NCBI GenBank assembly: GCA_012032775.1
Contig: JAAUQO010000014.1
Coordinates: 1-50,161 of the forward strand
Direction of reading: 5' to 3'
Source: Oscillochloris sp.
Lineage (GTDB): Bacteria > Chloroflexota > Chloroflexia > Chloroflexales > Chloroflexaceae
Length of the DNA stretch: 50,161 nucleotides
The notes under the pieces were generated by a model, which saw nothing but the letters and a program-made list of their open reading frames with translations, searched no databases and had not been told where the DNA came from. The number at the start of each line of letters is the position of its first letter. The first letter of the stretch is position 1. Made by a program: the position numbers and the translations under genes. Shown here piece by piece: positions 885-43,400 of the stretch.

Positions 885-917
885 GGTGGAAACCGACATT
901 ATATACCCGGTTGGACT

Positions 918-6642: not shown

Positions 6643-7190
6643 ATGCAGGAGATCGCTTTCGGCCAGGTGGTGCGTGAACGCCGGCGGGCGCTGGACTTGA
6701 CGCAGGATGCACTGGCCCGCCGGGTGGCCTGTGCGGCGATCACGGTACGCAAAATCGAGTCCGGTGCGCTGCGCCCCTCCCAGCAAATTGCCGAGCGGCT
6801 CGCCGTGGCGCTGGCGGTGCCGCCTGATGACCGGGCCGCCTTTGTGCATCTCGCTCGCCGCAGCCTTCCCGACGGGCGCGAGACGCCGCAGCCCCCACCA
6901 ACGCCGCCACCCACCCCCGAGGAGGTCGGGTTGGAGGATCTCAGCGGGCGCGCCGTCTGCGGCTACCAACTTGGCGAGCGGATCGGCTCCGGCGGGTTCG
7001 GTGCGGTCTATCGCGCTATGCAACCCCTTGTTGGGCGCGAGGTGGCGGTGAAGATCATCTTGCCGCGCTTCGCCGACCAGCCGGAGTTTATCCGCCGCTT
7101 CGAGGCCGAGGCCCAGATGATCGCGCGTCTGGAGCATCCCCATATCGTGCCGCTCTACGACTACTGGCGCGAGCCGGGGGTGGCTTACCT
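6643..7190 (+). pseudogene. XRE-Ser/Thr kinase gene, cut by an IS element
   Basis: A good Shine-Dalgarno (GGAGGAGGG) precedes the ATG. Residues 1-60 are an XRE/Cro-type helix-turn-helix (RRALDLTQDALARRV), followed by a Pro-rich linker and the N-lobe of a Hanks-type kinase: glycine loop GSGGFGAVY at about residue 116, the VAVK lysine at about 137, and the alpha-C region EAQMIARLEHPHIVPLYDYW. After residue 182 the IS4-type element begins, and the catalytic HRD and DFG loops are absent. The frame continues by chance through the IS to 8361, but that part is not protein sequence. Without the C-lobe it cannot be an active kinase; a short DNA-binding product is possible. Confidence 0.85.
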
Positions 7191-11052: not shown

Positions 11053-11096
11053 TAATTATACCTCATCGTTACCATTATGACCGCCGCTAATTGGGA

Positions 11097-11283
11097 TTAA
11101 TTTTCGTGCCAGAGTTGTGCAAAATACTCCATCAGCAATCGATGAGTGAAAATATATCCACCTCCAACTTTGCGTAGCAAAATGCGCTGGGCGGCATATA
11201 GCAATCCTACCAGAACCGAGAACCCAGAACCAGGAACCGCAGTATCAGTACGCAGAACCGCCTTCACAACTCTGATGAGATTG
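11097..11283 (-). pseudogene. C-terminal remnant of a STAND/NACHT-type NTPase
   Basis: Directly after the stop of the nSTAND1 gene, one frame over, the minus strand reads LLYAAQRILLRKVGGGYIF then THRLLMEYFAQLWHEN and a stop. This GGYIF-HR-LLxYFA tail is a recurrent C-terminus of large Chloroflexota NTPases. It has no start of its own and does not match the end of the preceding gene, so either the nSTAND1 gene has a frameshift plus deletion near its end, or a second NTPase has been lost. Confidence 0.5.
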
Positions 11284-13722
11284 CTATAGCAACGCTGATG
11301 TGCGTAGCCAAAAGATATAAAGCCCGCCGCAAAAGATCGTTAAGCCGAGACATACAGCAATAACGGTGGCGACGATAAGCATTTTAAGCTTATTGCGGCT
11401 CTCTGCGATCAACAGATCCAGCCCTTCAACAGACCCAAGCGCGGAACTATACCTCTCCCGCCACTGCTGTGCTGCTTCGATCTGCGAATGCCGGCTTAGG
11501 GTTTCTCCTGCTGTGCGCCAACTCATCACCCGTTGCTCAAGGGTGCGGCGAGTCTGTTCGGCCTCTCGCAAGCTTTGTTCACCGCCCTGATACGGCTCCG
11601 CTGCGAGCCAGGTGCGGAGGGTTTGCCAATGCCGAATCAGTGCCTCGTGGACGATGTCGATCCGTGCGGAGGCGCTTGTGTCGCTGGTCGTCAACAATCG
11701 GCCGTTGATCAAGTGATTAAGGGTGTGATCAAAGTGTTCGTCATCATCAGGGGCTTGCAAACGGGCGATCGGTAATTGCCGGCGCGTATCGTCGTGGCCT
11801 TCGCCGAAGTTGATCAGACGCAAAAAGATGCGCCGAGCGATCGTGATATCGCCCTGATGTGCTTCCAGTTCACTAATCACGCCGTCGGCATATGTTTGGA
11901 CAACTCTGGCCAGTCCGCCGATCCGTTGGTCGTACAAAGACTCGGTTAAGTTACGGTGCTGATTGGCATACCAAAGCCGTTCGAGCGCAAGCTGCAGTAG
12001 TGGTAAGGCACCTTGATCGCGCAGTACCTCGGCCTCACGAATGAGTCGCGCCACCAGTTGCTGCTCAATCGGAATGTTCTCATGGCGCGCCGGCCGTTCA
12101 ATGATCGCACGTAAACCCTTCGCATCAAGCGGGCCAAGCAGGTAGTGCTCACTCTGGGTCTGGGGTGCGAGATTCAGTGCTGCGAGATCAGCTACGAAAT
12201 CATCGCGGATGACGAGCATCAGCGTGACTTGAACCGCCGTATGTCGGCGCAGTGCGGAGAGGATGCGCGCAAATTCAGACTGTTGGTCGCTGTCGATATG
12301 TCGGCGCGACTCATGCTGATTCGTAAATACCTCTTCAAACTGGTCAAGAATCAGCAGCAGACGTTCACATCCCCGGCGTTCGAGGAGTGCGTCCACCGCC
12401 TGAAGTGCTTGATCAGCCGCAAGCTCGCCCATCTCAAGGGCTGATTGTAGATTATGGGTCGGATTACTGCCGGGGCGCACAATCAACACCAGGAGCTGCG
12501 GAAATCCGGCGCTGAGATGCCGGTACAATCCGGCGTTTACCAGTGAAGATTTGCCGCTGCCGGAAGGGCCGCTGATAACGATCAGACGCAGACGCGGTTC
12601 TGAAACCAGTTGCTCGATCTCGTGAATCACTTGCTCCCGCCCATAGAAATACGCACTTTCATCGATCGAAAACGGGCGGAGCCCAGGATAGGGGCAGCGC
12701 GGCGGACGCGGCACCTCCGGCGGAAAAAACGGCCCCGGCGCAACAAACTGATCGCTGATCAGCGTGTCGATCCAGCGGGTATCGACGGCATGGTAGCGCT
12801 GTTGCGCCGCCTGAATCTCCGCGAGCAAGCCGGCATCAAACAGGCTCGCAATCGGTATTGCCCGTGTCTGGTCGTCGCTGTATTCACGCTGGAACGCTGT
12901 ATCGACGGCAGTGGCGGGAACATGGGAGGCTGTGCCGGCTTCAGTTGAGGGCGTCAACCGCGGCCACGGATCTTTCACCCCGCGGGCGTACAACAACTCG
13001 ACCACTTGCTCAACCTGATGCTGCCGCTCCAATTCGACGGCAAGCGCGGCGACTTTGCCGGTGAATGTTAGGTCCGGCAATTGTTCATACGCTTTATTGA
13101 GCTGAAAGCAGATCTGTTTAACGTCATCCTCATTACAATGGTCGAGGATGAAGTGGTAGAGGGCATTGATCAGGTTGCGGCGAGCATGATCGATCGCGCG
13201 CACGCCGACCATCACTCCGCAGATGCCGCCGGTACGCTCATTCAACAGGGCCGCCCCGCTGTACCTGGCGGCGCGGGGGAATGCTTCTACGCTTATTGAA
13301 GGCCATGCCGTTCGTAGTTCGCTGCGAATGCTGGTGGTATGAACCTCACGTTCGCGTCCTGGGCTGTAGCCGATGCAGCGCAGCGCATCCCGCAACTGAT
13401 ACTCGGGATGGAGGAACACACAGGCATGTTGGGTGACGGGAACGCGAATGAGGGCAATATCAGCCTCGCCCCACCATTGGACAACCTCGCCGTATTCGCT
13501 GTTCCCAGGAGCGTGATCAACTCGGATCACCGATCCATTCAGGGCAATCAGGTGATCACCGCGCCGTTCGGCCACAAGGTTGGCGCAGGTCAGCAGCAGC
13601 CCCGGAGCAACAAAGAAGCCGCTGCCCGATTGTGGGCCGCGCTCACTACTGACACGGACGATGCATGCCTTGAGGAGCGTCTCAAGATTCTGGAGGGGCA
13701 TAGCTGTACGGCCTATCTCCAT
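11284..13722 (-). CDS. Trypsin-like domain - EAD - nSTAND1 NTPase
   Basis: An 812-residue multidomain protein. Residues about 15-190 resemble a trypsin-like protease: GSGFFVAPGLLLT, the Asp in EADIALIRV and the Ser in RYSGAALL. At the place of the catalytic His the sequence reads TCANLVA, so His is replaced by Asn (codon 13579-13581) and activity is doubtful. A divergent EAD follows (about 190-255, FILDHCNEDDVKQICFQL). From about residue 340 comes the nSTAND1 NTPase (CPYPGLRPF, Walker A GPSGSGKSS at about 385, Walker B LLILDQFEEVF at about 455). A single membrane helix ends the protein (about 777-807); the WD40 repeats that often follow nSTAND1 are missing. Such NTPases act as signal-sensing switches in conflict systems. 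An alternative start is the ATG at 13701. Confidence 0.85.
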   Translation of the reverse strand: MEIGRTAMPLQNLETLLKACIVRVSSERGPQSGSGFFVAPGLLLTCANLVAERRGDHLIALNGSVIRVDHAPGNSEYGEVVQWWGEADIALIRVPVTQHACVFLHPEYQLRDALRCIGYSPGREREVHTTSIRSELRTAWPSISVEAFPRAARYSGAALLNERTGGICGVMVGVRAIDHARRNLINALYHFILDHCNEDDVKQICFQLNKAYEQLPDLTFTGKVAALAVELERQHQVEQVVELLYARGVKDPWPRLTPSTEAGTASHVPATAVDTAFQREYSDDQTRAIPIASLFDAGLLAEIQAAQQRYHAVDTRWIDTLISDQFVAPGPFFPPEVPRPPRCPYPGLRPFSIDESAYFYGREQVIHEIEQLVSEPRLRLIVISGPSGSGKSSLVNAGLYRHLSAGFPQLLVLIVRPGSNPTHNLQSALEMGELAADQALQAVDALLERRGCERLLLILDQFEEVFTNQHESRRHIDSDQQSEFARILSALRRHTAVQVTLMLVIRDDFVADLAALNLAPQTQSEHYLLGPLDAKGLRAIIERPARHENIPIEQQLVARLIREAEVLRDQGALPLLQLALERLWYANQHRNLTESLYDQRIGGLARVVQTYADGVISELEAHQGDITIARRIFLRLINFGEGHDDTRRQLPIARLQAPDDDEHFDHTLNHLINGRLLTTSDTSASARIDIVHEALIRHWQTLRTWLAAEPYQGGEQSLREAEQTRRTLEQRVMSWRTAGETLSRHSQIEAAQQWRERYSSALGSVEGLDLLIAESRNKLKMLIVATVIAVCLGLTIFCGGLYIFWLRTSALL

Positions 13723-17620: not shown

Positions 17621-18352
17621 TTACTCACGTGCTGCCTCCCAATCGATCTCGGGGCGGTCTTCACGAGCCAATTCAACCAGTTCCATAAGCCTTCCTCGCC
17701 GTAACATGTATTCAATCAGTCGGCGCACACTGGCGCTGTGTTCAGTAATCATAATGTCTTCGTGCGGCAGTTCGCAATCAAAACAGAGTTGAGCGATCTC
17801 TTCACGGCTGAAGTGGTTCGTGAAGATGCGGCGCAGCCGCCGACAATGGTAAGGAGCGCACCGTGATCGGTTCGTTGGCTCGGGAGTATCCGGATCAGGC
17901 AGGCTCCGTTGTAATGTGAGCACGAAAAGCTGATTGATCTGCACTGCCACTTTGGCGGCTTCTTTCCGGCCTAGCTTCAAGTCGCTGCGCTGCGCCTGTT
18001 GCAGTACCTCGTCGGCGGTTACTTGCGGCAATGATGCGGGGAGTGTCTCTAATCCGCCGACACCGGCGACACCAGCCGACATGAAGGCGCCGCTCACAAG
18101 TTGGGTGACGAGCGGCACCACGATATATGCCATGAGTTTCCCGCCCCCCAGGCCGAAATCGGCGTCCGATCCGGCGCGCACCGTTTCACCCTGAGCGGCT
18201 CGTTCCAGCAACGGCCCGATGACGTACGGGGTTGCGACGGATTCTCTCGGACGCACGATCGCGATCACAGCGCCACTGACCGCCTCGACGAGCGCCCGAT
18301 TGGCGGCCTTGTCCACCGAGGTGTTGAAGTATTCGAAGCGTGGGTCGTTCAT
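17621..18352 (-). CDS. Unknown N-terminal domain fused to EAD
   Basis: A 243-residue protein. Residues about 1-155 are of unknown family, with a hydrophobic Gly-rich stretch (LGGGKLMAYIVVPLVTQLV) that may contact membrane, and helices rich in Ala and Gln. The C-terminal 70 residues are an EAD: FSREEIAQLCFDCELPHED, then SVRRLIEYMLRRGRLMELVE and EDRPEIDW. The gene starts 8 nt after the propeller gene ends and is followed by the EAD pseudogene, so it is within the operon. It is likely an adaptor that recruits other EAD proteins. Confidence 0.7.
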   Translation of the reverse strand: MNDPRFEYFNTSVDKAANRALVEAVSGAVIAIVRPRESVATPYVIGPLLERAAQGETVRAGSDADFGLGGGKLMAYIVVPLVTQLVSGAFMSAGVAGVGGLETLPASLPQVTADEVLQQAQRSDLKLGRKEAAKVAVQINQLFVLTLQRSLPDPDTPEPTNRSRCAPYHCRRLRRIFTNHFSREEIAQLCFDCELPHEDIMITEHSASVRRLIEYMLRRGRLMELVELAREDRPEIDWEAARE

Positions 18353-30456: not shown

Positions 30457-32146
30457 GGCATGTATCCTCGATCAGCCGGTCAAGCCAGATTTGTTCCAAC
30501 CGACCGGCGATATGGTTCGGGTCACGATGCGGTTCGACCAACAGGCTGCGATGGGCGGAGACAAAGCGCCAGGGCCGTGGTGAAGCGGGTTCTTGGGGCA
30601 ACCACGTCACCGAGGTGTATACATCGGCGCCGATGCCGGAGGCGAAATGGCTGACCATTCGGCGCCAACCTTGATTTTCGGCGACTCCTTCATCGGCGGT
30701 ATCTTTCGGCGCGGCGGGAGCGGGCAAGAAGAGCATCAGGTGGACATGGGCAAACTCCGCGATCACCTCGTTCCAGGGTTGCGGCGTAGCGCTCGGGCGA
30801 TCCTCATGTCGGGCGTTGTCGCGTTGTACTGCCCAGGCCGCCCGACACCAACGCGCCGCTGCCGGACCACTGTCACGCATGTCGGCTTGATCGGGTAGCG
30901 GCAATGCCATGGGCCAATCACGGCGATTGAGGAACGAAGGGATCCAGCGCAACGCCTTGAGAAACATCCAGCGATCGCCGGCGGAGAAGGTTTCGTCATG
31001 GGCAAGGATCGGAAGATCTCGGAGTAAGTAGCTTGTGCTGCGGGCGAGATTGGGACGCGGCGCCTCGATCCAGCGGATTTCGCTGCGGTACAACTCCTGA
31101 CTGCGTAAAAAAACCGCGAATCGCCACATACAATCGAACCAGCATGCCTTTGCCAGCGCGGCAACTGGCAGGCACATGGCTTCAGGCGTCATCATGCCGA
31201 CCACCAGGACGTGGCGGCGTTTCTGATGGCGGGGTGGTCGTTCAATGGTCAAATAACCGGTGTTGAGCACGCGATCCAGGAATACTAATTCGGGATTCAC
31301 TAACTCGGTATGGATAATACCGCTTAGATCTTCGAACCGGCGGGTGAGCTTATAGCCCGTTACGCCCCCTTCATTCAGGCGGCGACTGCGTTGGCGCTTG
31401 TGCGGCGTAGTGACCACTCGCGGCCGGCTATGTTCACGCAGAAACGGTTCTGGTTCGGGTGTCAGCCGCAACATCAAGCCCAGCGCCAACGGATCGCTGT
31501 CGGGGAGTGCCGGGGCATCGCGATGTGCCGCCGGTTTCATCGCACCGCTTGCGTAGGTCAGGGCAATCTCAGCCCAGAATAGGGCGAACGAATCTTCTTC
31601 TTCGCTGTCGGAGCCGGCGATGGACTCGACCAACATGTGCAACTCGCGCTCATATTGCTCGAAACCAGCCTGATCTACACCCTTACCAGGTTCGTCGGCA
31701 CAGGCGAGGATGCTGCGTCCAAGGCGCATACATGCCGTCGCGAAGAGCGGAAGGGCCAGTCTCAAGACCGTATATGCGGGTGATTCACGCAGCACAAAGC
31801 CGGTGCCGCTCGTCGCTTCGGCTAAGCCAGATGCGTTTTTCGCCATTGTGCGGCGCAACTCACGGCGCAGCCGCGCCGTCACTGCCTCCCAGAGATCGCC
31901 GAAGTGCTGCGTCTCGCCGAGCATCAACCGTGCCAGGCCAATTGCGGCTACCGGCGTTATTCCGACATGCCGGCTATGAAGCGTTGCAATGATCGCCTCA
32001 GCCGACTGTCGCACCCGGTTTTGCAATTGTTCGCCTTCGCGGCTACGGTTACTGCGCAGTTCGTGTTGAAAGGCAATTTGCCACAACTCCTGCCAGAGCT
32101 GTGGGCCAACGAGATCGATCTCGATCTGCTCACTAGGATTCGACAT
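30449..32146 (-). CDS. ViaA-like partner with degenerate vWA domain
   Basis: Started at the ATG at 32146 (MSNPSEQIEIDL), which overlaps the end of the MoxR gene by 14 nt, it has 565 residues. An N-terminal helical half is followed, after a basic linker (TTPHKRQRSRRLN), by a region that begins RRHVLVVGMMTPEAMCLPV. In position and pattern this looks like the first strand of a vWA domain, but the MIDAS motif DxSxS is absent. A helical stretch (VAALAKACWFDCMWRFAVF) and later strands follow. The order RavA-like ATPase then vWA-like protein resembles RavA-ViaA. The vWA call is inference; without a MIDAS, metal-dependent binding is unlikely. Confidence 0.55.
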   Translation of the reverse strand: MSNPSEQIEIDLVGPQLWQELWQIAFQHELRSNRSREGEQLQNRVRQSAEAIIATLHSRHVGITPVAAIGLARLMLGETQHFGDLWEAVTARLRRELRRTMAKNASGLAEATSGTGFVLRESPAYTVLRLALPLFATACMRLGRSILACADEPGKGVDQAGFEQYERELHMLVESIAGSDSEEEDSFALFWAEIALTYASGAMKPAAHRDAPALPDSDPLALGLMLRLTPEPEPFLREHSRPRVVTTPHKRQRSRRLNEGGVTGYKLTRRFEDLSGIIHTELVNPELVFLDRVLNTGYLTIERPPRHQKRRHVLVVGMMTPEAMCLPVAALAKACWFDCMWRFAVFLRSQELYRSEIRWIEAPRPNLARSTSYLLRDLPILAHDETFSAGDRWMFLKALRWIPSFLNRRDWPMALPLPDQADMRDSGPAAARWCRAAWAVQRDNARHEDRPSATPQPWNEVIAEFAHVHLMLFLPAPAAPKDTADEGVAENQGWRRMVSHFASGIGADVYTSVTWLPQEPASPRPWRFVSAHRSLLVEPHRDPNHIAGRLEQIWLDRLIEDTCRE

Positions 32147-33179
32147 AAGCCAGATCCAGCATTTTGGCAGCCTGCTCTTTATCGCCGGGCTGAATAAAGT
32201 GATCCAGGAAGTATTCGGGAAAGAGTCGTAGCTGGCGTTCACCGAGTTCGATCGGCGTCGCTGTACGCAGGTGGCCTTCCACCACCGCCTGATACATCCG
32301 GTCGATCAGCATAATGTGGCTCATTTTCACCAGTCGCCGGTTGGAAACTTCGGAAAGCCGGTGGATCCGGGCATGGCGTACCAGAGCCGCGAGATTGCCG
32401 TAAAACCCATGGGCCGTTTTCGGTGCGAGGTCGGCGCTGCGTGCGCGAATCGCCGTCCGAAAAGACTCCAGACCGTCCAGCAATTTCGGCCGTGGTTGAA
32501 GCGATGCTAATGAATCGCTGTAGGTGGTTTGCCAGCCTGCGCGGAGCAACTTCGCAATGTCATCGGGCTCGGGCTCGGCATTTTCAACGTGACAGCGCAA
32601 AACAAAGCGATCGTACACCGCCAGCAGTTCGGCGCTATCCGGGACATGGTTGGTTGCGGCGAACAAACTCTTGAGTTTCACCGGTTTCCGCTTCCCGCGA
32701 TCGTGGAAGTAACGCTCATTCATAAAGGCCAGCAGGGTGTTCAGGATCGCGCTGGATGCGTTGAATACCTCATCGAGGTAGACAACCTCTGCTCTTTGCA
32801 TCATGTTGTCTTCGATGCGCTCCATGCGCCCTTCTTTCGCTTTGGCGATGTCGTAATAGCCGAACAGTTCGCTCGGCTCGGTAAAGGGCGTCAGCAGGTA
32901 TTCAAAATACCGATCATCGCGATTGTCCGGCTTGTCGATTTCGGCGAGATCCAGCACTCCAACCAATCCACAGAAGACGCGAATGATTCGTGATTTGGCG
33001 GTTCCCGGCTTGCCGATCAGCAGCAATGGTGAATCCGATGCTACCGCGAGGATCAGAGCGCGGATCACAGCGCTCATGTCGTGGAAATGCTGATTAAGCT
33101 GTTGCTCGACGTAGACCAGGTCGCGGAGCACGGCTTCGTGATTGTGGGCGAGGGTACGAATGGCTGCAGGATCAAACAT
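32133..33179 (-). CDS. MoxR/RavA-family AAA+ ATPase
   Basis: A complete 348-residue ATPase: Walker A GKPGTAKS, Walker B VVYLDEVFN, sensor 1 in FAATNHVPD and an Arg finger region YDRFVLR. MoxR ATPases act as chaperones that remodel or load partners, usually together with a vWA protein. Its ATG overlaps the preceding stop by 8 nt, and the ViaA-like gene overlaps its own end, so the three are tightly coupled. Confidence 0.88.
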   Translation of the reverse strand: MFDPAAIRTLAHNHEAVLRDLVYVEQQLNQHFHDMSAVIRALILAVASDSPLLLIGKPGTAKSRIIRVFCGLVGVLDLAEIDKPDNRDDRYFEYLLTPFTEPSELFGYYDIAKAKEGRMERIEDNMMQRAEVVYLDEVFNASSAILNTLLAFMNERYFHDRGKRKPVKLKSLFAATNHVPDSAELLAVYDRFVLRCHVENAEPEPDDIAKLLRAGWQTTYSDSLASLQPRPKLLDGLESFRTAIRARSADLAPKTAHGFYGNLAALVRHARIHRLSEVSNRRLVKMSHIMLIDRMYQAVVEGHLRTATPIELGERQLRLFPEYFLDHFIQPGDKEQAAKMLDLAYVES

Positions 33180-33633
33180 GGTCGGGCGTCTCCTTACGGT
33201 TCCACTGCGCCAGCAGATCGAACCAGGGCGGTCGTTCTTGTTCCCAGTTGGGGTTTGCCAGGGTAAAGGGCGGCTGTTCGTGCTGCGGAACGGTCGCGCC
33301 GGCAGACTGATGGAGCGGCAGGGCGGCCAGTGCCTGGTGTAAAGGCGAAGCGGAGTTGCTCTTCGGTTTGCTCCATTGCCGTTGCGCCTCGCTCAACACC
33401 CACTGATCCCAGAAACCGGCCCATCCAGCGCTGAGTGCAATCCCTGCGGCGATCGATTGGAGGCGCTGTAGGGCTGCGCGCACAAGGCGCCGGCGTGGCC
33501 AGGGCAACAGGAGTTGCGGGTTGCCGATCTCGGCCAGCGCGATCAGCGCCCAGTAGCACTGTGGGGCGAGGATCGGTACCGGCGGCAGTCCCGGAAAGAA
33601 CAACACCTGTCGGGCGAGGGTCTGCCGCAACAA
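33172..33633 (-). CDS. Unknown operon protein, C-terminal frame
   Basis: A 153-residue frame that reads on from RSILAARRQRAWADEHFVG upstream, out of frame with 33543-34118, so it is the second part of one gene. Contents: LFFPGLPPVPILAPQCYWAL and a Pro/Gln-rich C-terminus ending PDHV. It overlaps the MoxR start by 8 nt. Confidence 0.55.
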   Translation of the reverse strand: MLRQTLARQVLFFPGLPPVPILAPQCYWALIALAEIGNPQLLLPWPRRRLVRAALQRLQSIAAGIALSAGWAGFWDQWVLSEAQRQWSKPKSNSASPLHQALAALPLHQSAGATVPQHEQPPFTLANPNWEQERPPWFDLLAQWNRKETPDHV

Positions 33634-34118
33634 GCGGGATGTGCGGCCGACAAAGTGCTCGTCGGCCCAGGCACGTTGCCGGCGAGCGGCCAGAATGGAT
33701 CGCTCAACCAGCGTGAGTCGATACCGCCGATGTGGCGATCCACCCAGATCGTGGCAAATCCTCGCCAGTCGGCATCGCTGATCGGGTGCTTCACCACCCG
33801 CCGGAGGCTACGTTCCAACGGCTTGCTCAGTTTTGGCGGCGTCCAGGCGTTACGAGTCAGCGGAAATAACCACCAGATCCCCTGGCGCAGCCAGGCCATG
33901 AACAGGAATCGGCGAAGCGGCACGGCCTGTCGCCCCCAGGCATACGGCAACAAGAGCGGCAGCTCACGCGACGGCACAAGCTGAACGAGTGAGGGCGGCG
34001 GTTGCTGATGCAATAGTGCCGACAGTAAGCGCTCTCCGACCCGTTGCAACATCGCGGCGGCCGGCTCAAGCGGGATTGGCCTCAGATCGAGGGATGACAT
34101 CAACACCCGTGCGTTCAT
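33543..34118 (-). CDS. Unknown operon protein, N-terminal frame
   Basis: Start ATG 34118 (MNARVLMSSLDLRPI) overlaps the vWA stop as ATGA. Rich in Leu, Pro, Arg and Trp (LLPYAWGRQAVPLRRFLFM). The frame makes sense to about 33720 (WRGFATIWVDRHIGG); after that the coding moves to the frame of 33172-33633, in which YRLTLVERSILAARRQRAW is well formed. The intact product would have about 315 residues. No family recognised; it links the Bat-like and RavA-like halves of the operon. Confidence 0.55.
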   Translation of the reverse strand: MNARVLMSSLDLRPIPLEPAAAMLQRVGERLLSALLHQQPPPSLVQLVPSRELPLLLPYAWGRQAVPLRRFLFMAWLRQGIWWLFPLTRNAWTPPKLSKPLERSLRRVVKHPISDADWRGFATIWVDRHIGGIDSRWLSDPFWPLAGNVPGPTSTLSAAHPACCGRPSPDRCCSFRDCRRYRSSPHSATGR

Positions 34119-36778
34119 CGTCCAAGCTTTCCAATCAAAATCGCAATCCAATACATGATTGCCGCCAGCACGAGCAGAATCGGCCAGAGTTCCCAGCGTT
34201 CCCGCTGCGGATCGACAAGTTGGAAGAGTGGCTCGTTCGGCCCTAGCGGCACTCTGCTCGCGCCACCTGCTGCCGCGACTGCATCAAGCAGCGCCAGATC
34301 GCTGCCGAAACTATATGCTTCAGTAGTAACCGGACGAGCGACGGCGCCCTGTGGGGGAATAATCAGCGGAATGCGTTGTGGGCGCGGCAGCGCATCCGGC
34401 CCGCTTTCTTCGATAATCAATGTCGCCTCCTGCGCCTGTTCGGCCCGCGGTACCGTGATCCGGGTGCGGAACGTAGCGGGTGCGCCGGGGTCATCTGTTA
34501 CGACCAGTTCAACCGGGGCTTGATCACCTACCTGGATGCGCATTCCAACGCCCTCGACCCTGGGAAGTTGCGCGTTCTCTGCAACCAGGCTCAGGCTCAA
34601 CCCGATGGCGGCGCCGTCGTCTTGAAGTTGGAAGCTGTAGCGCTCACCGGCACTAAGTGGTGCCAAACGGCTGATCCACTCGCGCAGCGCCTCAAGTGAC
34701 TGCTCGCTTGTGAGCCAATTCTCGGTCAGACCGCTGGTGAACATCCCTACATATCCGGCTTGCGCCTGGCGGTAGGCCAACACCGGATCGCGTACTTTTG
34801 GGCGGATGGCGATGATTTCGGTATCGTCATCGCGGGAATGAGCGATCGCATTGCCGGGCAAAAGCAGTTCGGGAATGGGCGGCGGCGCTTGGATCCGTGC
34901 GATAGGTGCCAATGAAAATGCTTGAAAATCGCCGGATTCCCAGAGGCGGGTTCGTTGTTCCGGCTCGAAGTAAGGAATGGTGATCGTGGTTGGGTTAAAC
35001 GTCGGGCCAACCGGGAATGGATCGGCTAAGGCCGACAGCGCCGGGGTGATGTTGCCGCCGATGGCAAAGGCGGTTGCCCGGCAGTCGGGACGTAGTGAGA
35101 CCGGGTTGAATTCGCCGTCGGTCACATAGATCAGGCCGCAATCTTCGTATTGCTGGCCGGCGACCAATGAGACTGCCTGACTCAGGTCGGTGCGACCATC
35201 CGCTTGCAACGTGGATAATTTGGTGATCGCATCACGTTTGGCGGCCGGCGTCATCGCCTGGTTCTTCACCAGATGGAAGGCTTTATCGGTAAAGGCGATA
35301 ATATCGATCGTATCGACCGGGCGCAGAAGGCGGATGATCACATCGGCGACGATCTCCTTAGCCTTTTCCAACGGCCAGCCGCTCATCGAGCCGGAGGTGT
35401 CGATCAAAAAGATCACATGGCGGGTCGGCGGCTCGGATTCAAATGGACGTGGACCACTTTTCAGCGGTAATATCGACGCAATCGGCGTATCGTCGTAGCT
35501 CTTGATGATGGTCACCTCTTCGTCACTGCGGCCGGCATGATCGCCGTTAAGCATCATCAAGCCAACGCCGGATTGCTCCACTGCTGCGGCGATCTGCGCC
35601 AGTTCGCCGGCGGCGAAATCCTGTGCGGCGACGGCGCTGATCACCATCACATCGTAGGAACGGAGATCGCCGGCCAGTGCGAGTTCGCCGGCCGCCAGTG
35701 ATGTAATCTCAGCGGCGCCTTCAGGAAATGCCGACTGCCAACGCTGATCGCCGCCGATCGCCAGGAGCCGTAGCGGTCGTTTGACATAGGTGTAGAAGCG
35801 CCGGCGCTGTTCACCCAGGCCGGCGTCGAAATTGATCGCAAGATCGAGAAACTGAAGGCCGTAACCTCCCGCGAAGGTGATCCGGCTGCGGAGCGGCAGC
35901 ATACTTTCGGCCGCCACCGTCTGGGTGAGCGGCTCCGTTGCAACGGCTCCGCCGAGGCGCGGGCTGGCATCGTTCAGCCCGGTATTGAGGCTCAAGCTCA
36001 GCGCCACCGGTGTGTCGTCGGTACGTGCATTCCAGAGCACGCCCCGCAGCAGGAGCGGATCGCCGGCATAGGTCTGGCGCGGCAAGTCGGCGGCGAGGAG
36101 GGCGACTTCGGTGCCCTGGCTACGCACCGGATAGACGTACACCGGAATTCCGGCGGCGGCAAGCTCACGGGCCGCCGTCTCGGCTTCACCCTCGGTCTGT
36201 AATCCATCGCTCACCAGCAACACTGCGCCGCGCCCGCCCGCATCGAACACTTCCTGTTGCGCCCGGCGTAGGCCGGCGGCAATGTCACTGCCATCGCCGT
36301 CGATCGCCGCCGCATCAAGTTGGCGCACCCGATCAGGTAACGCTTCAAGCGAGTCCGGCGGCGGTCGGAGCAGGGTGGCATCATTGCGGAAGACCACGAT
36401 ACTCGCCGAACCCTGTTCACGCAGATCGTCCGGCAGCGTTTCGATCACATCTTCCAGGAGATCCCCTACCTCGTTTCGGGTTTGCTCCCAATATTCATCG
36501 GGCCGAATCATGCTCGGCGAAATGTCGAAGGCAACTGCGAGATGGATCGGTTCAGGTTCAGATTCCTCGGTGATGATCGGGTTCCAGGCGGCGCCTGCCA
36601 GCAGCACGACGGCGCTGATCGTACTTCCGATCACGAGCATCCGGAGCACTACATTACCGGCAAGGGCCGCGCGACTGCGGGCGCGCAACAGCGCCAGGAA
36701 GAGGATCAGCCCTACCGCTATAGCCAACCCGGTTGCGGCAAGATGGAACGGCGCTTGTGGTTCGAAGATCAATTCCAT
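34115..36778 (-). CDS. Membrane protein with two vWA domains and a GATase-like domain
   Basis: An 887-residue protein. Two N-terminal membrane helices lead to a vWA domain with an intact MIDAS (VAFDISPSM, about residue 85). Then come Ig-like strands, a glutamine-amidotransferase-like fold (LRLLAIGGDQRWQSAF, YDVMVISAVAAQDF) and a second vWA with MIDAS LIDTSGSM (about residue 460), plus GRTDLSQAV and VTDGEF for the other metal-binding loops. A C-terminal helix (WPILLVLAAIMYWIAILIG) ends it. The order matches large vWA membrane proteins known beside MoxR genes. It overlaps its neighbours at both ends. Both MIDAS motifs look functional. Confidence 0.85.
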   Translation of the reverse strand: MELIFEPQAPFHLAATGLAIAVGLILFLALLRARSRAALAGNVVLRMLVIGSTISAVVLLAGAAWNPIITEESEPEPIHLAVAFDISPSMIRPDEYWEQTRNEVGDLLEDVIETLPDDLREQGSASIVVFRNDATLLRPPPDSLEALPDRVRQLDAAAIDGDGSDIAAGLRRAQQEVFDAGGRGAVLLVSDGLQTEGEAETAARELAAAGIPVYVYPVRSQGTEVALLAADLPRQTYAGDPLLLRGVLWNARTDDTPVALSLSLNTGLNDASPRLGGAVATEPLTQTVAAESMLPLRSRITFAGGYGLQFLDLAINFDAGLGEQRRRFYTYVKRPLRLLAIGGDQRWQSAFPEGAAEITSLAAGELALAGDLRSYDVMVISAVAAQDFAAGELAQIAAAVEQSGVGLMMLNGDHAGRSDEEVTIIKSYDDTPIASILPLKSGPRPFESEPPTRHVIFLIDTSGSMSGWPLEKAKEIVADVIIRLLRPVDTIDIIAFTDKAFHLVKNQAMTPAAKRDAITKLSTLQADGRTDLSQAVSLVAGQQYEDCGLIYVTDGEFNPVSLRPDCRATAFAIGGNITPALSALADPFPVGPTFNPTTITIPYFEPEQRTRLWESGDFQAFSLAPIARIQAPPPIPELLLPGNAIAHSRDDDTEIIAIRPKVRDPVLAYRQAQAGYVGMFTSGLTENWLTSEQSLEALREWISRLAPLSAGERYSFQLQDDGAAIGLSLSLVAENAQLPRVEGVGMRIQVGDQAPVELVVTDDPGAPATFRTRITVPRAEQAQEATLIIEESGPDALPRPQRIPLIIPPQGAVARPVTTEAYSFGSDLALLDAVAAAGGASRVPLGPNEPLFQLVDPQRERWELWPILLVLAAIMYWIAILIGKLGR

Positions 36779-38430
36779 CGCTTACCCCACAGCAGCAGCA
36801 CCGTCCGCTCAATCAAGAGCAGAGCGCTCGCAAGCACAACCAACAGCGGCCACAAACGCCCTTGATCCTCATTCAGCGGTGCCGGCTCCCAGCGATCGAT
36901 TTGCCCAATCGAAACCGCTTCGCCGTCGGTGTTGCCTTCGCCGGGATGAAATGCCAGGCGGGTTCCCTCCGGCTCCGGATTCGCCGGTGATGTCAGCGTA
37001 TAGATCGCTGAAAAATCGCGCTCGCCTAACAGGAACCGCAACGCATTGAAAAACACCGTCTGCGTGAACGCACCGGCATTGTCATCGCTCCAACGGGGCA
37101 AGCCCGGCACATATACCACCGCTGGATCAGTTTGCAAGCCAATCCAGATCGCGCCGTCGCTACCGCTCATAACGGCAGCGATGTCTTGCGGAAGCCCGCT
37201 GACCCTGGGCATGCCGACCTGCTCCGCGACATCAAAGTTCAGATCGGCCAGTAACAGGCTTCGCTCGTCGAAGTAGCCGATCACCTGCGGCGTCACCGGC
37301 GGATCGGTTGCGTATCCCGGGCCGACGATCAAGGTGGGGATGTCGGAAGGGATGCGATCGAGCGATTCGTGGCTGATCACCAGTACCAGCGGATCGGTTT
37401 GCGATGTTGTCCAGTTCAGTTGCTCGAGCAGCGAGCGGTCGGCCAATTGCCAATCGAGCCGAATCGCTTCCGACGCAGGTATCGTGATCCGAATCTCGTC
37501 ATCATATTCATACACACCATCGGCGGAAAGCGCCAACCTGTACTCGCCGGGACTCGTCGGGCGAAACCGATCCTGGATCACCCGAACATTGGCCCAACTC
37601 AGCTGCTCCTCACGTAACATCCCGTCAGGGCCACTGATACGCAGCGAGCTAACTCCCGCTTGTGGCCCATAGGCGACGATCTCATACCGGATCTCGACAA
37701 TCTCGCCGGTGAGGGTGTTGCGAACAGGTTCGATAGCGCTGAATCCGACATTTGGCAGCGGCTGAGCCAGATCGCGCCACTTCACCGCAAACGGTAGCTC
37801 GGCCAACCACTGCGGCGCCGGGCGATCTGCGATCACCACCACATCCGTGATCGGACATATGACCGAAGGCGCTCCTTCCGCTTCCGTCAGCGTCAGTCGG
37901 CTCCGAAGAAGATCGAGATCGGTGCCCAGGGGCCGCGCGCTGAGCTGAGACACTGCGTTTATCGCCTGGCTCGGATCGCCGCTGGTGGCTAATTCGCGCC
38001 ATTCCAGATCAAATGCTGCGAGTTGCACACACCACCCCTGGCTCTCAGCGGCAGTTGCCGATCCGCCGATAACCTCAAGCGCCACCTGCTGGGCCTCAAC
38101 CATGCGGGGTGCGCCGGACTGGATGCTGCTCATACTTGCCGAAGTATCGACGATCAGCCATAGCCCGATGCTCTGCGGCCCGCGTATGACACCCTGCGCA
38201 TTGGCGGCCCAGACGGCCCAGAATAACAATGTCAAAACCAGCAGTTGGAGCCAGAAGAGCGGAGAGGTGACCAGGCGCCTGAAGCGAATCCGTCCGCCGA
38301 GCGGGCGCGGCGGATTCGGCAGCGGCGTAAGAAAGCGCGCCGCCGAGAGGCGCTTGCGCCGGATGGGAGGGCTAATGATGTAGAGCGCCACCAACCCGAT
38401 CAGGAGGGTGCCGAGAATGAAGGTACTCAT
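36769..38430 (-). CDS. BatA-like membrane protein with vWA domain
   Basis: A 553-residue protein with the BatA pattern: two N-terminal membrane helices (FILGTLLIGLVALYIISPP; LFWLQLLVLTLLFWAVWAA), a vWA domain with MIDAS LIVDTSASM, extracytoplasmic beta domains (TSPGEYRLALSADGVYEYD), and a C-terminal helix (LWPLLVVLASALLLIERTV). Genes of this kind follow MoxR and DUF58 genes in Bat operons, as here. It overlaps the DUF58 gene by 4 nt (ATGA). Confidence 0.85.
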   Translation of the reverse strand: MSTFILGTLLIGLVALYIISPPIRRKRLSAARFLTPLPNPPRPLGGRIRFRRLVTSPLFWLQLLVLTLLFWAVWAANAQGVIRGPQSIGLWLIVDTSASMSSIQSGAPRMVEAQQVALEVIGGSATAAESQGWCVQLAAFDLEWRELATSGDPSQAINAVSQLSARPLGTDLDLLRSRLTLTEAEGAPSVICPITDVVVIADRPAPQWLAELPFAVKWRDLAQPLPNVGFSAIEPVRNTLTGEIVEIRYEIVAYGPQAGVSSLRISGPDGMLREEQLSWANVRVIQDRFRPTSPGEYRLALSADGVYEYDDEIRITIPASEAIRLDWQLADRSLLEQLNWTTSQTDPLVLVISHESLDRIPSDIPTLIVGPGYATDPPVTPQVIGYFDERSLLLADLNFDVAEQVGMPRVSGLPQDIAAVMSGSDGAIWIGLQTDPAVVYVPGLPRWSDDNAGAFTQTVFFNALRFLLGERDFSAIYTLTSPANPEPEGTRLAFHPGEGNTDGEAVSIGQIDRWEPAPLNEDQGRLWPLLVVLASALLLIERTVLLLWGKRWN

Positions 38431-39449
38431 AGGGTCTGCTTCACAAACATACTCTGCAAATGCCGGTCGGCGAGCAACTGGTGAGTGAAAAATTGCAGCG
38501 GATTGGCAACGGTTTCACGAGGCCAGATCCAATGCCGGTGATCGAGATCCGCCAGTCGCGTAGCTTTTATGAATTGGCTCCGATTCCGCTCTATTTCTGC
38601 TTCGATCGCCCGGCGATTCTCGGCCCCCGGTTGGTCCGATCCAAGCTGGATTGTCACTTCAGCCCCTGAACCAAACAGCGGCACCTGCCAGACATCAGAA
38701 CCAAGATCGGCGCTTTCGTAAGGCCAACTATCGAGTTCAACCAGCAGTACCCAACACATCCCGGCCTGTGCTTGTGCGACAGTGGCGCTCAGCCGGCGCA
38801 CATCGGTTGTAAATTCAAAGTAGCAATCGGTCACAATCACCCAGACGGCCGTAGGAGGCAGAAAGGGCTGAAGCCGGCGCAGATTGGCCGGAGACTGTTC
38901 CTGATCGGCGGGTGTCAGCGCTGTGATCGCGCGGCGCAATTCCTGCTCGCCGGCAACTGCCTGCGGTGGCCGTTGCGTCTCGTCGAACAGATGATGCAGA
39001 GCGACACTATCGCCGCCGTCAAGGGCAACACGGGCCAAGGCCTCGGCGAGCCAGCGTGCGATGAGCAGTTTCGACATCCCGCTCGTGCGTTCGTGTTCCG
39101 GTTCGGGCAGTGCCATTGTCGGCCGTGTATCGACGGAGATCAGCAACTTGAGTTGCTCCTCGGCCACAAAATTGCGAACCACCAGATCGTGTTCCTGGCC
39201 GTGCCGAGCAGAGGCACGCCAATCAACAAAGCGCACATCCTCGCCCAACTGATACGCCACATGTTCACGAAAATCCAGGCTCTGGCCTTTGCGCCGCATC
39301 AACTGGCCTCCGCTCAAGTTCGGCGCGATTGCCTCACGGGCTTCGAGGCGGTATCGCTGGAGAAGCGGCGGGTCGTGAGCGGCAGCAGCGGGAATTGCTT
39401 CATCAGCGGGTAGCCTCCCGGCCGAGCACCTTGCGCAACTCGGTAACAA
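38427..39449 (-). CDS. DUF58 protein
   Basis: About 340 residues. The DUF58 signature is clear ([19 protein letters not shown] followed by [11 protein letters not shown]), with a vWA-like fold after it ([13 protein letters not shown]), where the MIDAS is incomplete (DTRPT). DUF58 proteins accompany MoxR ATPases. The start is uncertain: the only in-frame initiator is a TTG at 39449, inside moxR, whereas a well-placed ATG (TGATG at 39403) begins [14 protein letters not shown] in another frame and stops after 29 residues. A lost or gained base near 39370 would join MKQFPLLPL to [15 protein letters not shown]. Confidence 0.8.
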
Positions 39450-40383
39450 ACAGCGTCCGATAGTGGGCGGCGTCGGCGGTGCTGGGTGCGGTTACCGCAC
39501 ACAACTCGGCGATAAGGGCCGCCAGTTTGTCGTCTTGGAAGGCGAAGGTAGCCGGAACACCGCGCAACGTGGTGCGATTGGCATCCTCGTACTGTTCGTC
39601 CCAGGCGAACGAAAGCTTGATGCGATGGCGCAAAATCGGGATGACGACGTGGGCGAGCGCCTCCGCATCGCCGATACGTTCGGCGTCAGGAAGTTGCGCG
39701 CTGCCAAACAGCAGCGACCAGGCCCGAGTTGCGCGCATCAAATTGATCACCGCCCTCGGCCCAAAACCATATACCATCAACTTCCCGATAACTTCAGCCC
39801 GCCGGCGCTGAGCGGTATCGATGCCGCTGAGTTCCTGAATCCGCACGTTCGAGGCAAGAAAGAGATTGATAATATGCTGGCGCACGTGTTCATGGAGTCC
39901 CACAAAGCGCACATCCTCATCATCCTGACCATTGTCGGGCATACCCAGTTGATCAACCTCGGCGATGTGTCGGCGAAAGCGATTACGAGTAGCGGTGTAA
40001 CGCTGAATGACCTCTTGTTCCGGATCGCTGATTGGGAGGCCTTTGGTGTGATGCTGGTTACAGGCAATATACAGAGGACGACGACTCGAAGCTACCCCCG
40101 CCTTATCTTCCACAAAAATGCGATGGGTCTTCTTCATGATTTGCGAAATAATATCCTTGTCGGGCACAGGCATGAGGATTTTGAACATAAACCGATCGGC
40201 TTGAGCTTCCGGCAAGGCGTAGGTTCCAACCTGATCGATCGGATTCTGGGTTGCAAGGACAAGAAACGGGTTCGGCAGCTTATAGGTACGGCCGAGTACT
40301 GTCACCTGACTTTCCGCCATCGCCTCCAAGAGGGCGGCCTGCGTCTTCGGCGTCGCCCGGTTTATCTCATCGGCCAACAACAA
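39403..40383 (-). pseudogene. MoxR-family AAA+ ATPase lacking its Walker A half
   Basis: The frame begins only at the Walker B strand ([20 protein letters not shown]) and continues normally through sensor 1 (LATQNPIDQ) and the Arg finger (EAQADRFMF) to the lid domain. The frame is open upstream to about 40460 ([30 protein letters not shown]), which is the normal MoxR sequence just before Walker B, then hits a TGA. The 100 or so residues with the P-loop are absent from all frames: the DNA there codes for the membrane protein. A deletion seems to have joined the end of the membrane gene to the middle of moxR. Without the P-loop it cannot bind ATP normally. Confidence 0.75.
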
Positions 40384-41069
40384 TGAGGTAAATACAGGCC
40401 CCGGATTGAACTGCCATTGATTGAGAGTACCGTTCTCAAAGTCGTCGCATTCGGCTTGAATGGGATGATCGCGCCTTCAAGCCCTACTCGGCCGCGCAGA
40501 TCCGTGACGATGTGAACGAATGATCCCGGTTGTTCAACGGCGGCCTGCACTTGCCGGCTATACCGTGTTCGCAAATTGATCGACGCATCCAACCAGTCAA
40601 GGATGCGGTGTGGCAAGGGAGTAACCCAGCAGAGCACCAGTTGTTCGTATTTGCGGGCCGGCAGAAACTCCAGTGCCTGGAGGCATTGCAATATGGTCAT
40701 ACTACAGATGACAATCAACCCGCCGATTAGCGCCAATGCCTCTTTGCCAAGCCCCAGAAATGCGATAACGATGACAATACCCGTCGCCGAAGCAGTCGCC
40801 CACAGCAAGTGGTACGCGCTGAACCAGAGCCAGAAGCGCCCGCCCTGCAGCGCAATATCTTGCGCGCTGAGGCTCTCGATATGAAGTAAGGTGCCGCGCC
40901 GTAATACGATTGTCAACAGGATAAATCCAAGCGCCGCGCTGCCGCACATGAAGGCGAGCGCGCCGGAGAACCAAAATACCTCTGCCGGAAATCTGCCGGT
41001 GAGATATGCGCCGAGGATACCGATGATGATCGCAATGCTGCTTGTTACGAGGGTTGGTCGAATGTGCAT
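40362..41069 (-). CDS. Membrane protein, C-terminus fused into moxR sequence
   Basis: A 235-residue frame with four membrane helices ([67 protein letters not shown]) and a cytoplasmic part. The last 25 or so residues ([16 protein letters not shown] onward) are moxR DNA read in a different frame, so the natural C-terminus was lost in the deletion. It starts 25 nt after the EAD-nucleosidase stop. Confidence 0.65.
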
Positions 41070-41094
41070 GGATTATAATTGCCGGTTAGGTTGT

Positions 41095-42360
41095 TCACGT
41101 AACCTGTGAGAGCAAGTGGCCGTAGCGCTGCAGAAAGTGGTACATCCAGTGTGCCGACGCTTCTGCAGCATATGTGTGAAATGTGTCGTCCTTGTCGGGA
41201 GTGCCGTAGTCGCTCACGCCTTTGACGGCAAAGGCCGGAACTCCGATCTCGCTTGCGGCAGCGAAGAGCGAGGCAACTTCAAGCTCGATCGCCCGCACCT
41301 TGCGCACCCGCACAGCGTGTGCGAGAAATGGATTCTCGACCGCAATTACGGCTTCAGTGGAAGCGAACGCGCCATAATGAACTGCCGGATTCGCATTGTC
41401 GCGTGTTGGGACTAATTTGCCGTGGTTGCGCCGGCGAATCTCTTTCAAGCGCTCCAGCGCGCGATCGGTAAGTTCACCGGTCGCGCTCACCATTTCGCTT
41501 TCTTCGAGTAGCTGCCGCGCACGTGGGTAGTCGATGTAGTTGCGCTTCACTTTGCTCCAATCGGCGGTGGTTTCAGGGAACGCCGTGCCGCGTTCGGCTA
41601 CCTGACAAAGGAGCCATTCGGCCTGGTAGTGCAGCGAACTCGGCCGAGGGGTGCCGATGCTTTTGAACCACGCGGTATCGGATGCAAAATCGCCGAGCCA
41701 TTGCAACAACCACGGCGGCGGTTGGTAGGTGCGGATGTCGGCTTCGAAACCGGCAATTGTCTGCCGGCCTTCGCCGGCATGAAACGCTCGTTCAGCGACA
41801 ATCACATCACCGAACCGAATGTCTTTCGACTCCCACCCGGCGCAGATACCAGTCATTGCGATCAGGCGCGGCTTGAGTGCTGCCAGACGCAGAATCTCGG
41901 CGGTTGTCGGGTTCCCGCCATATTTCCAAAGTGAACACGCTACGACATTGAGCGAACCGTCGGCGAGATCAAATCTCGCCTGGTGATGGATGTAGCGGTC
42001 AATTACGAGCGGTTGCCAGTGTTGCCTTCCGCCGATCAAATTAAGGATCGGCTCAAGCTCTTCCGGCATGGCGGTCACGATTGCAAGATCGATCCGCGTA
42101 GGTTGCCGGCTCACCTCGGGTGATTGGTCAGGTTCAGGTGTTTGTGGTTCAGGCGGCGTCTGCAGGCGCGTAATCAGCGCCGTGAGCCGGCCGCGCCGAT
42201 TGAGCCAGAGGATCATCTCGCGGGCTTTCGCCTGACGGCCTTCACCGCCGAGATCATCAAAGGGAACGGCGAGTTCCGCGCAAAGGGTTCGTAACTCGTC
42301 CAGGCTGTAGCGTTCAAGCAGCAGTTGATGGATGGTAGCGAACGGCATCTCTTGGTTCAT
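41095..42360 (-). CDS. EAD fused to purine nucleoside phosphorylase-like enzyme
   Basis: A 421-residue protein. Residues about 8-70 are an EAD (YSLDELRTLCAELAVPFDD, KAREMILWLNRRGRLTALI). A Pro-rich linker leads to a PNP/MTAN-type nucleosidase from about residue 88: IDLAIVTAMPEELEPIL, LIAMTGICAGWESKDIRFGD and AIELEVASLFAAASE followed by VKGVSDYG, the usual base and ribose sites. Such enzymes act as nucleotide-depleting effectors in several immune systems. It is the first gene of the long minus-strand operon. An AGGA lies shortly before the ATG at 42360. Confidence 0.88.
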   Translation of the reverse strand: MNQEMPFATIHQLLLERYSLDELRTLCAELAVPFDDLGGEGRQAKAREMILWLNRRGRLTALITRLQTPPEPQTPEPDQSPEVSRQPTRIDLAIVTAMPEELEPILNLIGGRQHWQPLVIDRYIHHQARFDLADGSLNVVACSLWKYGGNPTTAEILRLAALKPRLIAMTGICAGWESKDIRFGDVIVAERAFHAGEGRQTIAGFEADIRTYQPPPWLLQWLGDFASDTAWFKSIGTPRPSSLHYQAEWLLCQVAERGTAFPETTADWSKVKRNYIDYPRARQLLEESEMVSATGELTDRALERLKEIRRRNHGKLVPTRDNANPAVHYGAFASTEAVIAVENPFLAHAVRVRKVRAIELEVASLFAAASEIGVPAFAVKGVSDYGTPDKDDTFHTYAAEASAHWMYHFLQRYGHLLSQVT

Positions 42361-42645: not shown

Positions 42646-43117
42646 GTTATCCTATGTCCGGCCCCCTATCTCCAGGGCGAGTATGATCGGGGCAGGCAAC
42701 TGCTGCTCCAGGCATATGAACGTCTGATGGCGCTCAAACGCCTGGATATGGCGGCCGGTTGCGAGCATACGTGCTCAAGCTGAAACCGGCTCGTTGCGTC
42801 GCTATGGCCTGATTCATGTTGCGACCCACGGACAATTAGTAACGACGAGCGGCTTATTCGCCCATCTCAAACTCGCCGACGATGATCTGCGCTACGACGA
42901 CATCGTGCATATAGGGCTTGCCGGGGCGCTTGTGGTTCTGGCTGCTTGTGAAGGTGCTGCGGCGGAAGTGTTGCCGGGCGAAGAAGTACTGAGCTTGAGC
43001 CGGGCATTTCTTGCGGCCGGCGCACGTGGTGATCAAGAATCAGGTCAGTTGTTTCTCGCTCCGTTGGTTTGGGCCGGTATGGTGACGGTCGGAGCAGGCT
43101 TTGCGCCTCAAAGGTAG
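42646..43117 (+). pseudogene. Decayed TPR-CHAT gene
   Basis: The first part (42646-42780) reads a TPR-like helix pair (YLQGEYDRGRQLLLQAYERL, ending in a stop). The next frame, from about 42764, reads the middle of a CHAT domain: GLIHVATHGQLV with the catalytic His and VVLAACEGA with the Cys. After AFLAAGARGD the usual 60-70 residues before the C-terminal strand are missing, and LVWAGMVTVGAGF follows directly. A frameshift and an internal deletion make this a pseudogene. It shows that a second CHAT effector was once present. The 285 nt before it (42361-42645) hold no recognisable gene. Confidence 0.7.
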
Positions 43118-43163: not shown

Positions 43164-43313
43164 CTAACCACCGCCACCGCTGCCGGTGCAGTTCCCCGGG
43201 CTACAGGCCACCGCCGGTGTCGGTTGCGCGATCTGGCCAACGCTTACGCCGCCAATCGCGAGTGCCAGGCCGAGAAGCATCGCCGCAACAAGGTTTTTTC
43301 GGTTGCGTTGCAT
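43164..43313 (-). CDS. 49-residue secreted peptide with Cys pair and Gly tail
   Basis: Too short for standard gene calling, but the ATG at 43313 has a strong ribosome site (GGGAGGTGAG, 4 nt upstream). The product begins MQRNRKN, has a clean signal peptide core (LVAAMLLGLALAIGGVSV) and ends with a small mature part: TPAVACSPGNCTGSGGGG. The CSPGNC pair could form a disulfide. The gene lies back to back with the NB-ARC/TPR regulator. It could be a secreted signal or a modified peptide; no family is recognised. Confidence 0.65.
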   Translation of the reverse strand: MQRNRKNLVAAMLLGLALAIGGVSVGQIAQPTPAVACSPGNCTGSGGGG

Positions 43314-43400
43314 GGTCTCACCTCCCTTCGGTAACATCGCTCATGCGCTTTGGTAACAGGCCGAATACCTGTCCCAAGCACAGTCAAACACCGCAGGGAG

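What the first reader, a model, noticed from the sequence alone, without database searches (positions are those of the whole stretch)
43164..43313. Unannotated secreted 49-residue peptide back to back with an NB-ARC/TPR regulator
Strong ribosome site, a clean signal sequence and a mature part with CSPGNC and a Gly tail. A divergent STAND regulator next to a secreted peptide suggests a signal-receptor pair or a small secreted effector.
Basis: partly seen in the sequence, partly recalled or inferred. Interest (0 to 1): 0.6.

Follow-up and report, generated by a model that had tools for sequence, protein, structure and literature searches.

The report
CHAT-protease-linked secreted mini-peptide
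A 49-residue gene that matches no known protein family proves to belong to a real family of tiny, probably exported peptides in filamentous Chloroflexales bacteria, encoded beside a caspase-like protease and often a sigma factor, which suggests a dedicated secreted signal or effector controlled by a protease/sigma-factor switch.

Summary
In detail: 43313..43164 on the minus strand encodes 49 residues with a strong ribosome site, signal-like N-terminus, CSPGNC and a Gly tail. It is not chance: 17 loci in 15 Chloroflexales genomes encode relatives ending in A-D-P-G-x-GGG or (A)C-xPxx-C-GGG; no clear relative was found elsewhere in about 300 Chloroflexota genomes. The NB-ARC neighbour has the peptide at 2 of 23 NB-ARC loci. 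The recurrent partner is a TPR-CHAT (separase/caspase-like) protease: in 13 of 17 loci the peptide gene lies tail-to-tail with it, in the window with its decayed remnant (42670-43117). Six loci also place the peptide beside a rare sigma factor, usually followed by a putative anti-sigma gene. Five peptide promoters carry TGATACGTTTT; the two-box motif has 13 sites in 417 Mb, six of them in these loci. Best reading: the peptide is the exported output of a CHAT-protease/sigma switch, plausibly a cell-cell signal (one relative carries the C-terminal unit twice). In the window's lineage no sigma1 was found, and an HTH-NB-ARC regulator occupies its divergent position. Export, processing and function are inferred, not shown.

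The parts
43164..43313 (-). Short peptide gene, 49 aa plus stop: signal-like N-terminus, linker, C-terminal unit ACSPGNCTGSGGGG
43318..43326 (-). Shine-Dalgarno sequence GGGAGGTGA of the peptide gene
   Evidence: (sequence)
43368..43392 (-). Block GGTGTTTGACTGTGCTTGGGACAGG, 55-79 bp upstream of the peptide start, conserved with G030:C687; candidate promoter or operator of the peptide gene
   Evidence: 0 of 200 shuffles reach the score
43451..43461 (-). Second block shared with G030:C687 (CTGATCTGATT) near the NB-ARC start; candidate regulator site
42670..43117 (+). Decayed remnant of a TPR-CHAT protease gene, convergent with the peptide gene (gap 46 bp): one TPR fragment, frame-shifted, then the CHAT core with an internal deletion
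   Evidence: PF12770, 6.5e-12; 51% identity to the G030:C687 CHAT over 165 residues
43486..45795 (+). Divergent HTH-NB-ARC-TPR (STAND) regulator gene; conserved next to the peptide in one other genus; likely local regulator in this lineage (inference)

Best explanation
The ORF belongs to a Chloroflexales family of short, probably exported peptides, here called CHAT-linked peptides. Shown by sequence: the family, its C-terminal unit, its convergent pairing with a TPR-CHAT cysteine protease, its linkage to a rare sigma factor with a following putative anti-sigma gene (X), and a promoter-like motif shared by several members. Inferred: the CHAT protease responds to a stimulus through its TPR superhelix and cleaves an anti-sigma factor; the freed sigma factor transcribes the peptide gene (in two genomes apparently as a peptide-sigma-X operon); the peptide is exported, possibly trimmed, and its 9-13-residue C-terminal unit acts outside the cell, most likely as a signal between cells. 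In the window's lineage the CHAT copy has decayed and no sigma1 was found; the HTH-NB-ARC/TPR regulator sits in the divergent position that sigma1 has in Herpetosiphon and probably controls the peptide promoter.
For: Family found from the peptide alone; 4 of those hits (G030:C687, G030:C215, G009, G020) lie tail-to-tail with TPR-CHAT genes without having been selected for it. All told 13 of 17 loci are convergent with CHAT or its remnant; 11 measured gaps run from -33 to +288 bp. CHAT partners keep the His and Cys dyad motifs, and the fold matches separase, Csx29 and the anti-sigma DdvA. Sigma1 has only 15 hits in 82 genomes, and most lie near CHAT or the peptide. TGATACGTTTT precedes the peptide in five genera or families; the two-box pattern has 13 sites in 417 Mb, 6 in these loci. 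Tandem copies of the C-terminal unit in G045:C126. Protease/anti-sigma/sigma switches of this kind are experimentally known for Csx29 (PMC10028731) and CalpL (PMC11417357).
Against: About half of the CHAT homologues have no recognisable peptide. Four of 17 peptide loci have no tail-to-tail CHAT (G028, G018, G012, G001). X has an HxxxCxxC motif in only 4 of 10 and no significant structural match. The motif was derived from the promoters it was then tested on, and it is absent in the window, G030 and several Herpetosiphon members. No receptor or processing protease was identified. Export, cleavage and signalling are untested.
Confidence: 0.45

Rival explanations
1. The peptide is a small secreted or membrane-inserting effector (toxin- or bacteriocin-like) made when the CHAT/sigma switch fires: an abortive-infection or competition effector rather than a signal.
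For: TPR-CHAT/sigma modules act in conflict and antiphage systems; small hydrophobic peptides are common bacterial toxins (general knowledge); the window's neighbourhood is rich in conflict-system genes.
Against: The conserved and once duplicated part is the polar Gly-rich C-terminal unit, not the hydrophobic segment; no immunity gene recurs beside it.
Confidence: 0.25
2. The peptide is a membrane-anchored partner or substrate of the locus: an uncleaved signal anchor whose outward tail senses envelope state, or a regulator or substrate of the neighbouring CHAT protease.
For: Tight convergent linkage with CHAT; basic N-terminus and a single hydrophobic segment could stay in the membrane.
Against: CHAT proteins show no membrane segment in the model and are probably cytoplasmic, so they would not meet an outward tail; some loci have the peptide with sigma1 but no adjacent CHAT (G001, G018), and the window keeps it after CHAT decay.
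Confidence: 0.2
3. In the window specifically the gene is a relic: the frame survives by chance after loss of its CHAT/sigma partners.
For: The adjacent CHAT is a pseudogene; no sigma1 homologue at E<=1e-6 in this genome; no TGATACGTTTT-type motif in the window.
Against: Frame, SD and C-terminal unit are intact, and the upstream block is conserved with G030:C687. This does not exclude recent decay.
Confidence: 0.2
4. Signal and receptor pair of peptide and NB-ARC protein.
For: Divergent arrangement conserved in two genera.
Against: Peptide beside only 2 of 23 NB-ARC homologue loci; most peptides lie beside CHAT or sigma1 instead; an exported peptide would have to re-enter the cell to meet a cytoplasmic NB-ARC protein.
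Confidence: 0.08

Closest known systems
Type III-E Craspase: TPR-CHAT protease Csx29, Csx30 and CASP-sigma (PMC10028731)
   Same: TPR-CHAT protease with His/Cys dyad encoded near a sigma factor and a candidate sigma inhibitor; structural match to Csx29
   Different: No Cas7-11/gRAMP gene in the loci read; X shows no match to Csx30 in the PDB profile search; a short exported peptide is added
DdvS/DdvA of Myxococcus xanthus, ECF sigma and transmembrane CHAT-domain anti-sigma (PDB 8rot, 8rw5; review PMC12288465)
   Same: A CHAT-domain protein tied to an ECF sigma factor; DdvA is among the fold matches
   Different: DdvA is described as a transmembrane anti-sigma; the Chloroflexales CHAT model shows TPR helices from the N-terminus and no evident membrane segment, and candidate anti-sigma proteins are separate genes; no exported peptide is described with DdvA in the sources I could read
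CalpL/CalpT/CalpS (PMC11417357)
   Same: Protease, anti-sigma and sigma encoded together; [quoted passage not shown]
   Different: Lon-SAVED protease activated by cA4, not TPR-CHAT; no exported peptide described
HetF with PatS/PatX in Anabaena (from memory; HetF as CHAT protein in PMC8406250 search result)
   Same: Filamentous bacteria that use a CHAT-type protein and short signalling peptides
   Different: Peptide sequences unrelated; no sigma linkage known to me; resemblance is recalled, not tested
Gram-positive peptide pheromone precursors (from general knowledge)
   Same: Signal-like N-terminus with a short C-terminal unit; one tandem-unit precursor
   Different: No dedicated exporter, maturation protease or receptor identified

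Membership tests
CHAT-linked peptide family (defined here) | About 40-60 aa (up to 90), SD, basic start, one hydrophobic segment, C-terminal D-P-G-GGG or C-xPxx-C-GGG unit | tested here: met
CHAT-linked peptide family (defined here) | Gene tail-to-tail with a TPR-CHAT gene | tested here: met
   Window: with a CHAT remnant, gap 46 bp; family 13 of 17
CHAT-linked peptide family (defined here) | TGATACGTTTT-type promoter motif or sigma1 in the genome | tested here: not met
   Absent in the window; no sigma1 at E<=1e-6 in this genome. Present in only part of the family, so not a required feature
Type III-E Craspase system | Cas7-11/gRAMP partner gene in the locus | tested here: not met
   None among the neighbours listed at the TPR-CHAT/peptide loci
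Type III-E Craspase system | TPR-CHAT protease with His and Cys catalytic residues | tested here: met
   Homologues, not the window remnant:
Type III-E Craspase system | Csx30-type substrate | tested here: not met
   X profile finds no Csx30 chain in the PDB sequence search
Zinc-binding anti-sigma (ZAS) factors | HxxxCxxC motif in X | tested here: inconclusive
   4 of 10 X proteins
Zinc-binding anti-sigma (ZAS) factors | HxxxCxxC motif in the protein upstream of CHAT | tested here: met
   Two motifs in all five complete copies; sigma binding not tested
Bacterial lipoproteins | Lipobox cysteine directly after the hydrophobic core | tested here: not met
   Cys absent in the D-P-G members and well downstream of the core in the others (inspection)
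Secreted peptide signals | Export and release of a mature unit | not testable with these tools
   SignalP and mass spectrometry not available; only sequence features support it
   2 of 23 NB-ARC loci

The most novel reading that the evidence does not exclude
A previously undescribed peptide-signalling system of filamentous Chloroflexales: a caspase/separase-like TPR-CHAT protease and a dedicated sigma factor control a regulon consisting essentially of one exported precursor, whose 9-13-residue Gly-rich unit (Asp-Pro-Gly or Cys-loop type) carries a danger or developmental message between cells, a bacterial counterpart of protease-controlled cytokine release.
Probability: 0.25. Interest if true: 0.85.

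Novelty: new variant of a known kind. Interest (0 to 1): 0.62.

Why it matters
Protease/anti-sigma/sigma switches in bacterial conflict systems (Csx29-Csx30-CASP-sigma, CalpL/T/S) are known, but their outputs are mostly unclear. Here gene linkage and a near-unique promoter-like motif point to one tiny exported peptide as a dedicated output, in a group that includes the cultured Herpetosiphon aurantiacus DSM 785, where it can be tested. It also adds a small-protein family that the family databases searched here do not contain.

Tried and rejected
A genome-contig search with the single peptide found nothing: too short and divergent for that method. Pfam and NCBIfam have no family for it. A profile search in 301 Chloroflexota genomes gave order members plus a few weak hits inside longer frames, not counted. 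Rfam: no RNA family match in the window. Sigma1 profile across the phylum: outside the order only weak generic sigma hits. X fold search: nothing significant, on a low-confidence model. Lipoprotein reading rejected: Cys not conserved and far from the hydrophobic core. Chance ORF rejected (and homologues). Antisense or terminator artefact of the CHAT 3' end rejected: the peptide frames mostly do not overlap CHAT and keep SD and C-terminal unit. A weak G049 candidate (MRTMKQILLALWLGL...) was left out of the counts. Papers searched for this locus: eLife 2020 conflict systems, eLife 2021 TRADD-N, PNAS 2024 DGR; no description found by those terms. The 2024 DdvA structure paper and the 2018 DdvS paper are not held.

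Full report
Observation. The minus-strand ORF 43313..43164 reads MQRNRKNLVAAMLLGLALAIGGVSVGQIAQPTPAVACSPGNCTGSGGGG, with GGGAGGTGA close before the ATG. It is the only short ORF in the window with strong SD, basic start and hydrophobic core; first-order Markov random sequences give 0.3 per window and none with a Gly tail. The window is the whole contig C117 of one genome assembly; its relatives with names are Chloroflexales (Oscillochloris, Chloroploca, Viridilinea, Herpetosiphon).

A real family. A search of 100 relatives with the single peptide found homologues at E 1.9e-6, 9.4e-5 and 1.4e-4 in other genera of the family. A four-sequence profile added members, scanning the 3' flanks of CHAT genes added more, and two came from sigma-linked loci. 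In all I count 17 loci in 15 genomes: G000, G028, G018, G030 (two), G009, G012, G020, G001, G048, G042, G045 (two), G051, G059, G057 and G078. Most are 39-63 aa; one is 90 aa. The C-terminal unit comes in two forms: A-D-P-G-x-GGG (for example VADPGSGGGVGGGA, VADPGGNGGGSGG, LADPGSGISGT) and (A)C-x-P-x-x-C-GGG (window ACSPGNCTGSGGGG, VACDPTTCGGGDGG, ITCDPTGCGGG, LACGNPLICGGGGG); G009 and G078 are less regular. The homologue in G045:C126 carries LDLACGNPIVCGGGGG twice, which suggests that this unit is the functional module. In the one close pair (G051/G059) six of eight codon differences are synonymous. No clear member was found outside the order in 301 Chloroflexota genomes, and no Pfam or NCBIfam family covers it.

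The recurrent partner is a TPR-CHAT protease. In G030 (twice), G009 and G020, all found from the peptide alone, the gene lies tail-to-tail with a TPR-CHAT gene. Counting the window remnant and the loci found from CHAT, 13 of 17 are convergent; the 11 gaps measured run from -33 to +288 bp. The loci found by scanning CHAT flanks are biased towards this arrangement; the four found from the peptide are not. In the window the CHAT gene is a remnant (42670-43117): 5'-truncated, frame-shifted, internally deleted, 51% identical to the G030:C687 protein over 165 residues. An intact TPR-CHAT paralogue without the peptide lies on G000:C357. The converse is weaker: about half of the CHAT homologues have no recognisable peptide. 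The CHAT partners keep the His and Cys dyad motifs. The AlphaFold model (mean pLDDT 83) is a long TPR superhelix followed by CHAT and matches separase, Csx29 and the M. xanthus anti-sigma DdvA, at low TM-scores over the whole length.

Sigma linkage. A rare sigma factor (15 hits in 82 genomes of the order) lies next to the peptide in six loci and near CHAT in most of its occurrences. In G001 and G018 the order is peptide-sigma1-X, apparently one operon. X follows sigma1 in most loci; it has an HxxxCxxC motif in 4 of 10 and no significant PDB match, so its anti-sigma role is inferred from position and a partial motif. A second sigma factor and a protein with two HxxxCxxC motifs often precede CHAT.

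Promoter motif. TGATACGTTTT sits roughly 80-90 bp upstream of the peptide start in G018, G009, G020, G001 and G042, and GATACGTTT in G078. The pattern TGATACGTTTTN{8,18}CTYYT has 13 distinct sites in 82 genomes (417 Mb): four are peptide promoters, one is the corresponding slot 3' of CHAT in G013 where no peptide is recognisable, one lies divergent to sigma1 in G045:C140, and seven are elsewhere. The background rate predicts 2e-5 hits in the peptide upstream windows. The pattern was drawn from those promoters, so this shows near-uniqueness, not independent discovery; that sigma1 reads it is inference.

The window and the NB-ARC gene. No sigma1 homologue was found in this genome at E<=1e-6, though a distant sigma of the same broad type exists on C313, and the window lacks the motif. 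The HTH-NB-ARC/TPR gene lies divergent from the peptide, the position sigma1 has in Herpetosiphon. The arrangement CHAT> <peptide NB-ARC> recurs in G030:C687, with a 25-bp conserved block 55-79 bp before the peptide start. But only 2 of 23 NB-ARC loci have the peptide.

Mechanism. By analogy with Csx29/Csx30/CASP-sigma and CalpL/T/S, I propose that CHAT activation releases a sigma factor by cutting an anti-sigma, and that the peptide is the exported output. Signalling is my preferred role because the polar C-terminal unit is conserved and once duplicated, and because these bacteria are filamentous. Export, cleavage, sigma specificity and extracellular action are all untested, and a toxin-like or membrane-anchored role remains open.

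Verdict. I rate it a new variant of a known kind.

Noticed in passing
window 81-2618: A RAMP-superfamily gene (PF03787, 1e-8; 81-884) directly precedes a CHAT-TPR gene (918-2618), reminiscent of RAMP plus CHAT pairings in type III CRISPR; the contig ends here and no second copy exists in this genome.
   Followed up: partly
window 10495-13722, 17621-18352, 32133-42360: EAD7 domains in several proteins (with PNP phosphorylase at 41095-42360 and, weakly, in a trypsin-nSTAND1 protein at 11284-13722) around a bpMoxR/vWA/DUF58 ternary conflict-system locus.
   Followed up: no
window 6643-8361: An HTH-kinase gene appears to be interrupted by a DDE transposase gene on the other strand (7210-8337).
   Followed up: no
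L163 6146-6418 (G045:C126): A 90-aa homologue carries the C-terminal unit LDLACGNPIVCGGGGG twice.
   Followed up: partly
L160 5080-5330 (G013:C146): TGATACGTTTT motif and an SD stand in the usual slot 3' of CHAT, but no recognisable peptide follows: lost or strongly diverged.
   Followed up: partly
L159 7089-10499, L162 1713-4975, L164 7048-10327, L165 6004-9288, L170 7994-11468: A second, shorter CHAT protein (618-700 aa) and a hydrophobic membrane-type protein (456-485 aa) recur near sigma1/X.
   Followed up: no
L216 4373-5555 (G000:C313): The window's own genome has a distantly related sigma factor followed by a 119-aa HxxxCxxC protein, with no CHAT on the stretch read.
   Followed up: no
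L074 and L075: Two other NB-ARC homologues (G012:C25, G016:C302) have a more distant CHAT gene just upstream on the same strand but no peptide between.
   Followed up: partly
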